Origin: Metallosphaera hakonensis JCM 8857 = DSM 7519
GTDB taxonomy: Archaea > Thermoproteota > Thermoprotei_A > Sulfolobales > Sulfolobaceae
Direction: 5' to 3'
NCBI RefSeq assembly: GCF_003201675.2
Contig: NZ_CP029287.2
Coordinates: 2,344,001 to 2,408,000 of the forward strand
DNA length: 64,000 nucleotides
Position 1 is the stretch's first letter. Every line of letters begins with the position of its first letter. Position numbers and translations under genes: made by a program. This document shows, piece after piece, positions 4,616 to 11,512 of the stretch. The notes under the pieces were generated by a model, which was given only the letters and a program-made list of their open reading frames with translations, searched no databases and had not been told where the DNA came from.

Positions 4616-5734
4616 TCACGGATTCCTGATCCTCTTTTGTCCTCTTGGGATAACTGGTAATAACGCAAGAACTCCGAGTAGGCTTCCTAAGATTAAGAAG
4701 AGCTCCGAGTATCCTATGTTAACTGTGTACAGATAGGCGAACGTAAGGCTGCCCAGAATTCCTCCGATGGCCTTTCCAGTATATAGAATACCGCTATTCA
4801 CCGTGGAGAATCTGGTTCCGAATATCTCACCTGCTACGTTGAAGTATAGAGTTATCATGGATCCCCCGGCAAATCCAACTAGGACCGTAGTTAAGATCAA
4901 TTGACCAAACACCAGTGAGATGGAACCAATCAATAGGATAACATTTAAGAATAGGGTTGTCCTGACTATTCCAAGCATATCTGCAACTCTACCAAAGATC
5001 GGTCTAAGACCCCCGCTCAGAAGAGGGAATATTGAGATTAATGTCACTAACTCGGCAGGGGGAAGCGACTTCCCTAGGACTGATAACTGAGAGGAGACGG
5101 TAGTTAGGGGAACTACGGCTCCAATAAACGATAGATATATCAACCAGAACTTGGTTGTGAAGATGACTTGACCTGGGGGTCTACCCTTACTTGAAGTTGG
5201 ATATCGGATCAATGCCATCAGAATAGTTACTATAACTAACTCTGAGAGCCCAATGACGATGGTCACTTCCTTGTAGTTTCCAATCTTTAATATCAATGGG
5301 TTCGCCACAACCGAGCCAAGTCCGAAACCCATGGAGACTATACCGGTGGCGAAACCCATTCTGTCGTAGAACCATTTCATGGCCAGATTCGCAGCTATTC
5401 CATAAAGAATCCCCTCCCCAATACTGCCCAGGGACCAGAAAAGATAGAAGAAATAGATATTGGGAGAAACATAGGTACCGAGGAATCCCAGTGACGCCAG
5501 AATAGAGGCAATAATGCCCACGTTTCTGGGCCCGTTCTTATCTGCGAAGTGACCTCCGACTGGTTGGAAAAAGGAAGAGAAGATGCTGAAGAGAGTGAAA
5601 CCTAAAGCGATTTGTACTATGGAGACGTCAAAACCACTCTTCAATAGGGGTTCCAATGCGTTCCATGAGTATTGATAAAGAGAGTTGAAACACATCGCAA
5701 TGAAGCCAATTACTAAAAAGACCTCTCTTTTCAT
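4616..5734 (-). CDS. Major facilitator superfamily transporter (oxalate/formate antiporter-like)
   Basis: The 372-residue protein is almost wholly hydrophobic with about twelve predicted membrane helices. The first half has the MFS loop signature GGHFADKNGPRNVG between helices 2 and 3, and the second half repeats it as RPIFGRVADMLGIVRTT. Features such as the LYQYSWNALEPLL start and EGILYGIAANLAMKWF recall the oxalate:formate antiporter family of monocarboxylate carriers, so an organic acid is the likely substrate. It is transcribed alone, divergent from the mobile DNA and followed by no close gene. Substrate is an inference. Confidence 0.8.
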   Translation of the reverse strand: MKREVFLVIGFIAMCFNSLYQYSWNALEPLLKSGFDVSIVQIALGFTLFSIFSSFFQPVGGHFADKNGPRNVGIIASILASLGFLGTYVSPNIYFFYLFWSLGSIGEGILYGIAANLAMKWFYDRMGFATGIVSMGFGLGSVVANPLILKIGNYKEVTIVIGLSELVIVTILMALIRYPTSSKGRPPGQVIFTTKFWLIYLSFIGAVVPLTTVSSQLSVLGKSLPPAELVTLISIFPLLSGGLRPIFGRVADMLGIVRTTLFLNVILLIGSISLVFGQLILTTVLVGFAGGSMITLYFNVAGEIFGTRFSTVNSGILYTGKAIGGILGSLTFAYLYTVNIGYSELFLILGSLLGVLALLPVIPRGQKRIRNP

Positions 5735-5874
5735 TAGAGATCTCCCTGTTTGTTACAGATCCTTATGCATCTGTTTTAAAAGCTTTGCTTAGTTTTAAGT
5801 TTAAAGTATTCAAGTATAATGTATTTTTCAGTTAAATCTACAGGATAACTCTAACCTGAGTCCTGTTGAGCAAA

Positions 5875-5969
5875 TATACTCAGTCATTGTGTAAAGTGCA
5901 ATGTAGCGTCCAAACCCACTCGATGTGTCAGAAAAGGCTACGTTGCCCTTTAAAGTCTCAGGAAGTATA
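5875..5969 (-). repeat. 95-bp palindromic element, copy 3 of 7 (inverted)
   Basis: It reads TATACTCAGTCATTG to CTCAGGAAGTATA on the plus strand, the reverse complement of copies 1 and 2, with exactly the same length. It lies in the gap between the MFS gene and the minus-strand cluster ending at 6095. Confidence 0.75.
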
Positions 5970-6094
5970 CAAAAGGACTCTCATGTTTTCAGTTTAAACT
6001 AAAAAGAGAGCGAACGTCCTTTTCCGTAAGAGAAGGAACTGGTAGCTTCTCTTGTAGTAAATCTCCTTGTGACGGTCATTTTTACTTTCTGGAC

Positions 6095-6631
6095 CTAAAG
6101 GGCTTGAAGGACTAAACTTCTATTAATTTGAAGCGATTCAACCCCTAAGTGGCTTAATGGTTCCCTATCTATAATGCAAAACTCTGGAGTGGGTCCCATG
6201 GCTAGCAATCTTCTCCATAGGGTCCCTCTTATTTCCAATGACGAATAGAACTTCTCATAACTCACTCCACGCGGTTTACTAATCCACGTTACTATGTCTC
6301 TAGATAAAATCTCATGTTTACCGCTCTTGAGGGCGAAAAGGGCTCCTTTACCTTCTGCAGAAAATGATGCCACTTCGTCGTGAATAGTTCGAGCTCCCCC
6401 TTCAACTACTTCAATTAATCTGTCCAGAACTCCAGAGTCAAGGATGAAGTACCAGTCCTCGTAAATATCTCCCTTCGGCATCCAAGGTACGTCCACTCTG
6501 TAAGATGCAGATCCAAGGAAACCCCTAATATCGAACTGCCTTAATCCCTCGTGAAACTTCTTAAGATATTCCTCGTATCTCTCCTTGGGTACGTTAGGAT
6601 CCCTTCTATGCCAAAACACATATGCCTCCAT
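6095..6631 (-). CDS. Conserved hypothetical protein, possible dimeric alpha/beta-barrel (EthD-like) fold
   Basis: This 178-residue protein is not recognised with certainty. Its start MEAYVFWHRRDPNVPKERYE and the segment LDRLIEVVEGGARTIHDEVA suggest tandem ferredoxin-like repeats as in EthD/dabb proteins, where small enzymes or chaperones act on aromatic or dicarbonyl compounds. It has no membrane segment or signal. It starts one base after the stop of the muconolactone-isomerase-like gene, so the two form an operon and probably act on related substrates. The fold call is inference from pattern and context. Confidence 0.6.
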   Translation of the reverse strand: MEAYVFWHRRDPNVPKERYEEYLKKFHEGLRQFDIRGFLGSASYRVDVPWMPKGDIYEDWYFILDSGVLDRLIEVVEGGARTIHDEVASFSAEGKGALFALKSGKHEILSRDIVTWISKPRGVSYEKFYSSLEIRGTLWRRLLAMGPTPEFCIIDREPLSHLGVESLQINRSLVLQAL

Positions 6632-10301: not shown

Positions 10302-10709
10302 ATGCCAACTTTGGAGACACCTTACTCTATACTAAATGAAGTTGTAAGGGACGTTCTTAAGAGAAGCGGGAAATCAGCAACTGCAGAGATAGAGTTAATG
10401 CCCTTTAACCCATCCGTTCTAGGATTCGTTAGGGCAGGGCAAAATACAATATATGTGAACACCGTACCACTGATGGGAGTGGATCAAGCTCATGTAAGCG
10501 AGTACTTATATGTGGTCATTCTTCACGAGTACCTGCACCTCTTGGGAATAGCTGATGAAAGGGAGGTAAGGAGAATCACGCTGGAGATGGTAGACGAGAA
10601 GTTCGGACAATCCAGTTTCGCTCATAACCTTTCGTTGAAGCTGGCCGATCCCAGGGACGTCATGTTAATGGATTCCTGGAAAACGGGAAAACCACATACG
10701 TACATGTGA
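10302..10709 (+). CDS. Small metzincin-like zinc metalloprotease candidate
   Basis: The 135-residue protein contains HEYLHLLGIAD at residues 75-85, an exact fit to the metzincin zinc motif HExxHxxGxxH/D with Asp as third ligand. About 35 residues later PRDVMLMD could supply the Met-turn. There is no signal peptide or membrane segment, so it would act in the cytoplasm. It is much shorter than most metzincin catalytic domains, comparable to the smallest bacterial ones. It stands alone, followed by a 95-bp palindromic element and a vapBC module. Zinc binding is a strong prediction; proteolysis is inference. Confidence 0.65.
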   Translation: MPTLETPYSILNEVVRDVLKRSGKSATAEIELMPFNPSVLGFVRAGQNTIYVNTVPLMGVDQAHVSEYLYVVILHEYLHLLGIADEREVRRITLEMVDEKFGQSSFAHNLSLKLADPRDVMLMDSWKTGKPHTYM

Positions 10710-10901: not shown

Positions 10902-11289
10902 TTAGAATTTTCTCTTTATGTTAAATAAATCAAAATCTTTATCATTTGAATATATTGTATCAATCTTGAGTCTTTTCATCTGAGCAAAGATTGTTGCATC
11001 ATCCCAGAGTTTATAGCTCAGTCCTGAACTCTGCAAGATTCTTAAAGCGTTAATAATGTCTTCCCAGTTAGTTTCGGCAATATTCATTCCAGATTGCTGA
11101 AGGTAATTAATGAAGACTGGAATTACATGGTTCTTTCCTCTCCTCTCTAAATGAGCTAAAACCTGGGAAATTATGAGTGTTGAAGAATAAGCCTCCTCAG
11201 TCTCAACAATCTCTAGTAGCTCCTTGGCCCTTTCACCGTACAAAGGATCAGGAAAAAAGTACGTATATGAAAACGTTAGAATCAATCAT
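10902..11289 (-). pseudogene. vapC: PIN-domain toxin VapC, frameshifted near the N-terminus
   Basis: From the ATG at 11289 the frame reads MIDSNVFIYVLFS and then stops. The rest, from DPLYGERAKELLEIVETEE to the end, is in another frame. Removing one base from the run of six A (11253-11258, plus strand) restores MIDSNVFIYVLFPDPLYGER, a typical VapC start with the catalytic Asp at position 3. The other acids are present (ISQVLAHLE, LWDDATIFAQM, YSNDKDFDLF). The gene is therefore broken by a one-base insertion, or read through by frameshifting, or the run is a sequencing error. A TTG start at 11285 would give a protein without the first Asp. Confidence 0.75.
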
Positions 11290-11512
11290 TATCTTCAAAG
11301 CTTAGCGCCTCTTCGATATCCTCGATCTTAACATTTTCTTTTCCTGCTACTCCATAAATACTATCTATGCTTACTTTTCTTAAATTAATAATGATTCTTC
11401 CATTGTCTAGTGTAATTTCTACCTTACTTCCTTCCCTCAAGTTTAGTTTTTCTCTAATCTCCTTCGGTATTACGACTCTTCCTCTTTCGTCTACTGTGCC
11501 TGTATAACCCAT
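11282..11512 (-). CDS. vapB: AbrB-type antitoxin (VapB)
   Basis: The 76-residue protein has a SpoVT/AbrB swapped-hairpin domain at its N-terminus (GTVDERGRVVIPKEIREKLNL, then GSKVEITLDNGRIIINL) and an acidic tail that would bind the toxin. It precedes the PIN toxin, whose ATG lies 8 bases inside its 3' end. It probably represses its own operon. With the toxin frame broken, it may be an orphan antitoxin. Confidence 0.85.
   Translation of the reverse strand: MGYTGTVDERGRVVIPKEIREKLNLREGSKVEITLDNGRIIINLRKVSIDSIYGVAGKENVKIEDIEEALSFEDND

What the first reader, a model, noticed from the sequence alone, without database searches (positions are those of the whole stretch)
10302..10709. 135-residue protein with exact metzincin zinc motif
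HEYLHLLGIAD fits HExxHxxGxxD and PRDVMLMD is a possible Met-turn, in a protein without signal or propeptide. A cytoplasmic metzincin of this size in a hyperthermoacidophile would be unusual, with no obvious inhibitor or partner gene.
Basis: partly seen in the sequence, partly recalled or inferred. Interest (0 to 1): 0.5.

Follow-up and report, generated by a model that had tools for sequence, protein, structure and literature searches.

The report
Widespread archaeal mini zinc-peptidase family

Summary
The ORF at 10302-10709 and its letters are as described, and the gene is real: 25 of 31 genomes of its family (Sulfolobaceae) carry it. A profile finds it in 117 of 398 sampled genomes of its phylum and 57 of 243 of the Thermoplasmata phylum. 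No curated family model covers it.

The metzincin reading fails. Across 114 distinct homologues N53, H75, E76, H79 and G82 are invariant, but D85 is D in only 90, while the next residue, E86, is E in 112 and D in 2. The "Met-turn" methionines are not conserved.

Predicted models (pLDDT 85.9; 91.4 for a longer homologue) match the minigluzincins selecase and abylysin best, with YbeY close behind. The minigluzincins' third histidine lies 11-12 residues after the first; E86 lies at +11. So it is most likely a mini-Glu-zincin: H75, H79 and E86 bind zinc, and E76 is the base.

A terminal Tyr/Phe plus Ile/Met/Val closes 110 of 114 sequences, against 18 of 820 neighbouring ORFs. This tail is probably functional: a latency tail or an active-site prop. 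No partner gene is conserved. Zinc and activity are unproven.

The parts
10302..10709 (+). Gene: 135-residue predicted mini zinc metallopeptidase, standing alone (no overlapping or closely spaced gene on the same strand)
   Evidence: conserved and under purifying selection
10524..10538 (+). H75-E76-Y77-L78-H79: HExxH, two zinc ligands and the general base
   Evidence: H75, E76, H79 invariant in 114 of 114 homologues; Y77 in 113 of 114; lies on predicted helix 62-80
10557..10559 (+). E86: proposed third zinc ligand (H1+11), first residue of the next helix (86-101)
   Evidence: E in 112, D in 2 of 114; same place as the His conserved after HExxH in minigluzincins (H1+11 in MJ1213, +12 in projannalysin and proabylysin); coordination itself not shown
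10554..10556 (+).
   Evidence: D 90, S 10, N 6, R 3, A 2, G/E/Q 1 each of 114; helix starts at 86 in the model
10545..10547 (+). G82, invariant glycine of the turn after HExxH
   Evidence: 114 of 114
10446..10460 (+). TIYVN (residues 49-53): last strand before the active-site helix, with invariant N53; MJ1213 has TIYIN at the same place
   Evidence: N53 in 114 of 114; strand 49-53 in the model; MJ1213 letters
10422..10430 (+). GFV (41-43): short strand before it, proposed substrate-binding edge strand
   Evidence: strand in the model; role inferred by analogy with gluzincins, recalled
10650..10673 (+).
   Evidence: methionines not conserved; predicted helix 117-128 at lower confidence
10689..10706 (+). 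KPHTYM, the C-terminal tail ending in the family's terminal Tyr/Phe-Ile/Met/Val
   Evidence: 110 of 114 homologues end so, with at most one residue after it; 18 of 820 mechanically called neighbour ORFs do; low confidence in this model, while part of the longer homologue's tail is an ordered strand, 150-152

Best explanation
It is a soluble, cytosolic mini-zincin: a one-domain zinc metallopeptidase of the minigluzincin type with a glutamate in place of their third histidine. H75 and H79 on the active-site helix and E86 at the start of the next helix would hold a catalytic zinc. E76 would activate the zinc-bound water, and a peptide would lie along the short edge strand (41-43). D85 caps the second helix. 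The strictly terminal Tyr/Phe-Ile/Met/Val tail would fold back to the active site. I think a reversible latency tail (as in proabylysin) is somewhat likelier than a structural prop replacing the Met-turn (as proposed for Acel_2062). Shown: the gene, the conservation, the absence of a conserved Met-turn and the terminal motif. Predicted: the fold. Inferred: zinc, the third ligand, peptidase activity, the role of the tail; substrates are unknown.
For: Conservation in 114 distinct homologues: N53, H75, E76, H79, G82 invariant; E86 in 112 (D in 2); D85 only 90 (an alignment-free count gives E in 106 of 114 at H1+11 and D in 84 at H1+10). A second alignment, made by another tool on 100 sequences: the same five residues invariant, and E86 and the tail Tyr in 90% or more. 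AlphaFold2 models with pLDDT 85.9 (window protein) and 91.4 (L052 homologue). Foldseek: the ten best PDB matches of the window model are all selecase, abylysin or jannalysin (E 7.5e-4 to 0.041). VIA-align: window model to selecase 4qhf Z 10.1, rmsd 3.2, 99 aligned; homologue model to 4qhf Z 10.1, rmsd 3.0, 105 of 109 aligned, with the next family (YbeY) at 7.9. Third-ligand position: MJ1213, projannalysin and proabylysin have a conserved His at H1+11/+12, and a third His as ligand is stated for minigluzincins in PMC6925264 (passage). Tail: 110 of 114 against 18 of 820 neighbour ORFs. Precedents: proabylysin's C-terminal tail inserts into the cleft and touches zinc through V105 (PMC5557861, passages); Acel_2062's C-terminal Tyr113 carboxyl binds the first His and takes the Met-turn place (PMC3890501, sections 11 and 13). 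The single-sequence PDB search has lugdulysin, an M30 metalloprotease, as its only weak hit (two entries, E 0.0052 and 0.014; M30 is listed among Glu-zincins in PMC3890501).
Against: No coordinates were available, so the distance of D85 or E86 to the zinc site was not measured. Sequence links to minigluzincins are weak: profile against PDB gives MJ1213 E = 0.04 with 29 sequences but only 2.4, below chance hits to ribosomal protein bL20, with 100; hhalign probability 68.7 over 37 columns against only three sequences. Foldseek on the longer homologue ranks YbeY first (E 0.058), with nothing at or below 0.001. In the window model YbeY (Z 9.6) and the repair-protease entry 6mdx (9.2) tie with the minigluzincins, and one selecase entry, the tetrameric form 4qhh, scores only 6.8 and 6.0. 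VIA-align looks only at chains that Foldseek already ranked, and best Z values of 7-8 are common for models without a clear match. Within Sulfolobaceae D85 and E86 are both invariant (25 of 25), so this group alone cannot tell them apart. Catalytically dead-looking paralogues exist in some relatives, so the fold alone does not prove an enzyme.
Confidence: 0.6

Rival explanations
1. Asp-zincin: H75, H79 and D85 bind zinc as in snapalysin (recalled) or as proposed for the bacterial mini-zincin Acel_2062 (Pfam PF06262, motif HEXXHXXGXXD), with the C-terminal Tyr replacing the Met-turn.
For: D85 is present here and in all 25 Sulfolobaceae sequences. In Acel_2062 a water in one monomer is coordinated by His95, His99 and the Asp of the same motif, where zinc would be expected (PMC3890501, section 11). 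PF06262 is the Pfam family hit, weakly, by most members (13 of 100, best E 0.001).
Against: 24 of 114 homologues have S, N, R, A, G, E or Q at this place while position 86 stays acidic in all 114. No member reaches PF06262's cut-off (best E 0.001, 19.4 against 22.4 bits). Acel_2062 aligns with Z 7.3 and 6.1, below selecase 4qhf at 10.1 in both models. The paper notes that the Asp is also replaced, often by Glu, in part of PF06262.
Confidence: 0.2
2. A metal-dependent hydrolase that is not a peptidase, for example a YbeY-like RNase.
For: YbeY from S. aureus scores Z 9.6 against the window model and is the first Foldseek match of the longer homologue; three members hit Pfam YbeY weakly.
Against: The family keeps the Glu of HExxH in every sequence, which YbeY replaces by Gly (recalled), and has no His at H1+10 or H1+11. 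The YbeY match falls to Z 7.9 in the better model, against 10.1 for selecase.
Confidence: 0.11
3. A repair protease for proteins cross-linked to DNA, a functional analogue of Spartan/Wss1.
For: Entries 6mdx and 6mdw ('protease dependent DPC repair'; Spartan by recall) align with Z 9.2 and 7.4; Wss1 has been placed with minigluzincins and has an Asn on the strand before the active-site helix near the zinc, like N53 (PMC5557861, passages).
Against: At 135 residues the protein has no room for accessory domains beyond the catalytic fold, no repair gene is shared widely among neighbours, the third His of Wss1 is absent, and yeast Wss1 itself aligns with Z of only 7.2 and 5.4.
Confidence: 0.08
4. 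The conserved tail is not inhibitory but a structural prop (Met-turn substitute) or a recognition tag. This concerns the tail only and is compatible with the peptidase reading.
For: Acel_2062's C-terminal Tyr113 occupies the Met-turn place (PMC3890501); the dead-looking paralogues of two genomes also end in YYI, which an inhibitor of the own active site would not need.
Against: Two tandem copies with intact motifs lack the tail (L093, L104), which suits a removable regulator better than an essential prop.
Confidence: 0.4

Closest known systems
Minigluzincins: selecase MJ1213 (4qhf and relatives), projannalysin (4jix), proabylysin (4jiu); provisional MEROPS family M95
   Same: Small one-domain zincin (105-112 residues there, 135 here); best fold match (Z up to 10.1); strand TIY(I/V)N before the active-site helix in MJ1213; third ligand position at H1+11/+12; a C-terminal tail that matters in proabylysin
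   Different: Glu instead of His at the third position (112 of 114 E, 2 D); a conserved C-terminal tail beyond the part of the homologue model that aligns with selecase (residues 14-140 of 164); barely detectable sequence similarity
Mini-zincin Acel_2062 / PF06262 (Zincin_1, provisional M94)
   Same: Tiny zincin; this member also reads HExxHxxGxxD; no Met-turn; an aromatic residue at the C-terminus of many members (PMC3890501)
   Different: The Asp is not kept across this family; below the Pfam cut-off; lower structural score (Z 7.3 and 6.1); further helices and a tail after the third ligand here
Metzincins, e.g. archaemetzincin (M54) and snapalysin (M7)
   Same: HExxHxxGxxD spacing in this one protein
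   Different: No conserved Met-turn, Asp not conserved in the family; archaemetzincin 2x7m only at Foldseek E 1.4
YbeY (PF02130)
   Same: Similar small zincin-like fold
   Different: Keeps the catalytic Glu, lacks a third His; the YbeY motif is recalled
Spartan / Wss1 (SprT, WLM)
   Same: Minigluzincin-like fold
   Different: Third His at H1+10 absent; no accessory domains
Lugdulysin (M30)
   Same: Only weak single-sequence hit in the PDB, over the HEYxH region (E 0.0052)
   Different: Much larger protein (410 residues); low structural score for the homologue model (7bb8, Z 5.3)

Membership tests
Metzincin (MA(M)) | HExxHxxGxx(H/D) with the last residue as third ligand, kept across the family | tested here: not met
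   Present in this protein; D in 90 of 114 homologues, the rest S, N, R, A, G, E, Q
Metzincin (MA(M)) | Met-turn | tested here: not met
   By sequence: position 121 Met in 5 of 114 and position 123 Met in 6 of 114; any Met in positions 119-125 in 25 of 114
Minigluzincin (M95) | Minimal one-domain fold of selecase/abylysin | tested here: met
   Predicted models only: VIA Z 10.1 (99 aligned) and 10.1 (105 of 109 aligned) to 4qhf; YbeY and 6mdx are tied with it, and Foldseek on the longer model is weak
Minigluzincin (M95) | Histidine as third zinc ligand after HExxH | tested here: not met
   Glu in 112 and Asp in 2 of 114 at the matching position; His in the three solved members; third His stated in PMC6925264
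Minigluzincin (M95) | Latency through a C-terminal segment | tested here: inconclusive
   A conserved terminal motif exists and part of the tail is ordered in the homologue model; where it docks could not be seen
Glu-zincin (MA(E)) | HExxH plus a conserved downstream Glu | tested here: met
   By sequence conservation only
Glu-zincin (MA(E)) | Zinc bound by the two His and the Glu; peptidase activity | not testable with these tools
   Needs a structure or purified protein
Mini-zincin PF06262 / M94 | Pfam curated score | tested here: not met
   13 of 100 members hit at E up to 0.1, best 0.001 (19.4 bits, cut-off 22.4); the window protein does not hit
YbeY (PF02130) | Pfam match and third His | tested here: not met
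   Window protein: no match; 3 of 29 and 3 of 100 members weakly, best E 0.028; no His at H1+10 or H1+11 in 114
Spartan/Wss1 | Third His at H1+10 (Wss1 His125) | tested here: not met
   No His there in 114; ligand numbers from PMC5557861 (passages)

The most novel reading that the evidence does not exclude
A pan-archaeal family of mini-Glu-zincins is missing from the protein-family databases. It joins the minigluzincins (third ligand His) to classical Glu-zincins with a very short HExxH-to-Glu spacing (six residues between), and its activity is gated by its own extreme C-terminus, a Tyr-Ile-type tail that enters the cleft. In some Sulfolobaceae, inactive paralogues that keep a similar profile, and in two genomes the YYI end, would act as in-trans regulators.
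Probability: 0.25. Interest if true: 0.62.

Novelty: new variant of a known kind. Interest (0 to 1): 0.42.

Why it matters
It turns an unannotated gene into a testable enzyme family present in two archaeal phyla, including named Metallosphaera genomes. It corrects a motif-based misreading: the residue conserved across the family is the Glu after the Asp. If E86 is the ligand, the family shows how little separates His-type minigluzincins from Glu-zincins. If the tail is a switch, it is a compact model of zymogen control within 135 residues.

Tried and rejected
Rejected: metzincin (see membership test). A fixed operon partner: besides the family gene, no gene cluster occurs in more than 8 of 64 neighbourhoods or, leaving out ORFs on the other strand of the gene itself, in more than 9 of 84; the widest ones lie at scattered distances. 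A virus or plasmid gene: no relative among viral contigs (0 confirmed of 100 pattern matches), plasmids or phages. An HbYX-like proteasome tail was considered and dropped, because most members carry one residue after Tyr-Ile (83 of 114). A bacterial member: the WOR-3 hit L006 matches over 21 residues only; its phylum gave 0 of 60, with no positive control. PF06262 does not ring in the window genome, while 4 of 14 control genomes ring. NCBIfam: the only member hit near significance is far below its cut-off (L031, TIGR04549, E 0.0033, 16.7 against 75 bits). Hits G089 and G147 are not relatives (sequences) and were dropped. Searches count a few damaged or partial matches (G506 and G570 with stops inside, G426 and G751 partial). 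Rows dropped before counts: of 170 ORFs that matched, 55 repeated an already seen matched segment, leaving 115; the dead-looking paralogue L078 was then left out, giving 114. These 114 come only from loci that I fetched, not from all genomes that matched. Neighbour ORFs were called mechanically and include spurious ones. Literature: searches for minigluzincin/selecase (19 papers), Spartan/Wss1 in archaea, minigluzincin/gluzincin ligands, HEYLH (15 of 18 listed, unrelated by title), Sulfolobus + HEXXH, archaeal zincins (12 of 22 listed) and proabylysin/projannalysin. None of the listed titles or abstract starts describes this family; I read passages or sections of five papers only, and the library holds open-licence papers only. 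A bacterial-type promoter/terminator scan found nothing above chance.

Full report
The observation. No other ORF of 50 aa or more overlaps it, and the reverse strand in register has six stops. The genome is a 2.54 Mb Metallosphaera-like chromosome: genome G084, listed as the same genus, has a contig of the same length (2,464,819) as Metallosphaera javensis AP024487.1; Metallosphaera belongs to the Sulfolobaceae. Against four congeners dN is 0.11-0.21 and dS could not be computed (saturated), so the gene is under strong purifying selection. HExxHxxGxx[DH] occurs once among 247 window ORFs, with 0.007 expected in shuffles.

Distribution. The single sequence finds relatives in 25 of 31 genomes of its family and in two genomes of a second family of its order (29 of 197 hit in all; two weak hits dropped). 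Two Thermoplasmata archaea also carry it (L004, L005). The 29-sequence profile A1 matches 117 of 398 sampled genomes of the phylum, its own source genomes included, and 57 of 243 of the phylum of L004. It matches 0 of 60 of a bacterial phylum (no positive control). Nothing was found in viral contigs with A1, or in plasmids or phages with the single sequence. Six genomes of its own family gave no match; two of these are below 90% complete. No Pfam or NCBIfam model reaches its cut-off for the members tested, and no PHROG hit is better than E 0.07 for three members. The family is therefore large, archaeal and undescribed in these libraries.

Which residues matter. I collected 114 distinct homologues from the loci that I fetched and aligned them. 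N53, H75, E76, H79 and G82 are invariant. Y77 is Y in 113. Position 86 is E in 112 and D in 2, and R90 is R in 104. A count that needs no alignment (residue at fixed distance from the first His, 114 rows with HExxH) gives D in 84 at +10 and E in 106 at +11. A separate 100-sequence alignment lists the same five residues as invariant, with E86 and the C-terminal Tyr in 90% or more. Ser, Asn and Asp at 85, just before a predicted helix that begins at 86, look like helix caps. Ser, Ala, Gly and Arg would be poor zinc ligands. I infer that E86 is the third ligand. In the 25 Sulfolobaceae sequences both D85 and E86 are invariant, so the argument rests on the 89 deeper members, of which 65 have D and 24 do not. 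The suggested Met-turn is not conserved: Met at 121 in 5 of 25 Sulfolobaceae and 0 of 89 others, at 123 in 5 of 25 and 1 of 89.

Fold. The window protein was modelled with pLDDT 85.9 (tail poor) and a 164-residue homologue (L052) with pLDDT 91.4. Foldseek puts ten chains of selecase, abylysin and jannalysin first for the window model (E 7.5e-4 to 0.041), then YbeY at 0.1. VIA-align gives selecase 4qhf Z 10.1 (99 aligned, rmsd 3.2), abylysin 9.8, YbeY 9.6 and 6mdx (a DPC-repair protease; Spartan by recall) 9.2, which are ties. With the better model six minigluzincin entries lead (8.7-10.1; 4qhf 105 of 109 residues), with YbeY at 7.9, 6mdw 7.4, Acel_2062 6.1 and the tetrameric selecase 4qhh 6.0. 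Foldseek on that model is weaker and puts YbeY first at E 0.058. By sequence the link is faint: MJ1213 at E 0.04 with A1, 2.4 with A2, behind chance hits, and hhalign 68.7% over 37 columns. The single sequence's only PDB hits are two lugdulysin (M30) entries at E 0.005 and 0.014. Still, the motif strand is nearly the same (TIYVN here, TIYIN in MJ1213), and the conserved histidine of MJ1213, projannalysin and proabylysin lies 11-12 residues after the first His, where this family has E86 (+11). A third histidine as ligand of minigluzincins is stated in PMC6925264 (passage seen); that it is this histidine is my inference from its conservation.

The C-terminus. In 110 of 114 homologues the protein ends in Tyr/Phe followed by Ile, Met or Val, with no residue (27) or one residue (83) after it. 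Among 820 mechanically called neighbouring ORFs without the motif, 18 do. The exceptions are one divergent end (L054), one sequence that stops at a contig end (L096), and two tandem copies with intact motifs but no tail (L093, L104). In the L052 model part of the tail forms a strand (150-152) with block pLDDT near 90, while the last four residues average 57. There are two precedents. In proabylysin the C-terminal tail enters the cleft and contacts zinc (PMC5557861, passages). In Acel_2062 the C-terminal Tyr113 binds the first His through its carboxyl group and takes the place of the Met-turn (PMC3890501, abstract and sections 11 and 13). Which applies here cannot be settled without coordinates or experiment.

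Context. In the window the gene stands alone. Upstream on the other strand are a DUF2173 gene and an FAA-hydrolase gene. Downstream on the other strand is a MazE-like/PIN antitoxin-toxin pair, and then a radical SAM gene on the + strand. Across 64 and 84 neighbourhoods no gene is shared widely (at most 8 and 9 loci), so the substrate cannot be read from context.

Mechanism. I propose a zinc-water peptidase: H75, H79 and E86 bind zinc, E76 activates water, N53 and the edge strand 41-43 shape the cleft, and the tail regulates or supports the site. The gene, the conservation and the terminal motif are shown; the fold is predicted; everything about zinc, catalysis and the tail is inferred.

Known or new. 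It works like a minigluzincin by predicted fold and ligand position, but I do not file it there, because their third histidine was tested and is absent. It fits the definition of a Glu-zincin by sequence. It is not a metzincin by the two defining features tested. I rate it a new variant of a known kind.

Noticed in passing
L078:4944-5282 (+) and L174; L191:3974-4336 (-); L192:3950-4318 (+); L193, L194, L195: Dead-looking paralogues (113-129 aa) in other genomes of the family have lost HExxH (e.g. VEYLR in place of HEYLH) but match the family profile (hhalign 95.9% to A1). Those of two genomes of one genus (L173 = L078, L174) still end in YYI; the others end differently. Intact in 7 of 31 genomes, decayed in 2; none found in the window genome.
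   Followed up: partly
L191:4320-4667 (-), L192:3679-4002 (+), L193-L195: Overlapping with those paralogues lies a second small gene of similar pattern without HExxH (alignment A5; homology to the family only suggestive, hhalign 19%). It is found in 17 of 31 family genomes, not in the window genome. In L191 a DUF429 gene follows.
   Followed up: partly
L003, L070, L071, L072 and L078: A molybdopterin hydroxylase large-subunit gene lies about 1.2-2.3 kb (centre to centre) from the zincin gene in L003, L070, L071 and L072 (Pfam checked for L003, L071 and L078); in L078 the dead paralogue directly follows an XdhC-like gene. May be plain synteny.
   Followed up: partly
L093 (two copies, 5416-6543, -) and L104 (4736-5770, -): Tandem duplicates of the family gene in which one copy has the conserved C-terminal tail and the other ends before it, with intact HExxH.
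   Followed up: partly
window 10902-11512 (-): A MazE/AbrB-like antitoxin gene overlapping a PIN-domain gene: a VapBC-like pair.
   Followed up: no
window 10302-10709, compared across its family: Genus g5 (3 of 3 genomes) and one genome each of g2, g8 and g9 gave no match to the gene; two of the six are below 90% complete. It seems dispensable in some relatives.
   Followed up: no
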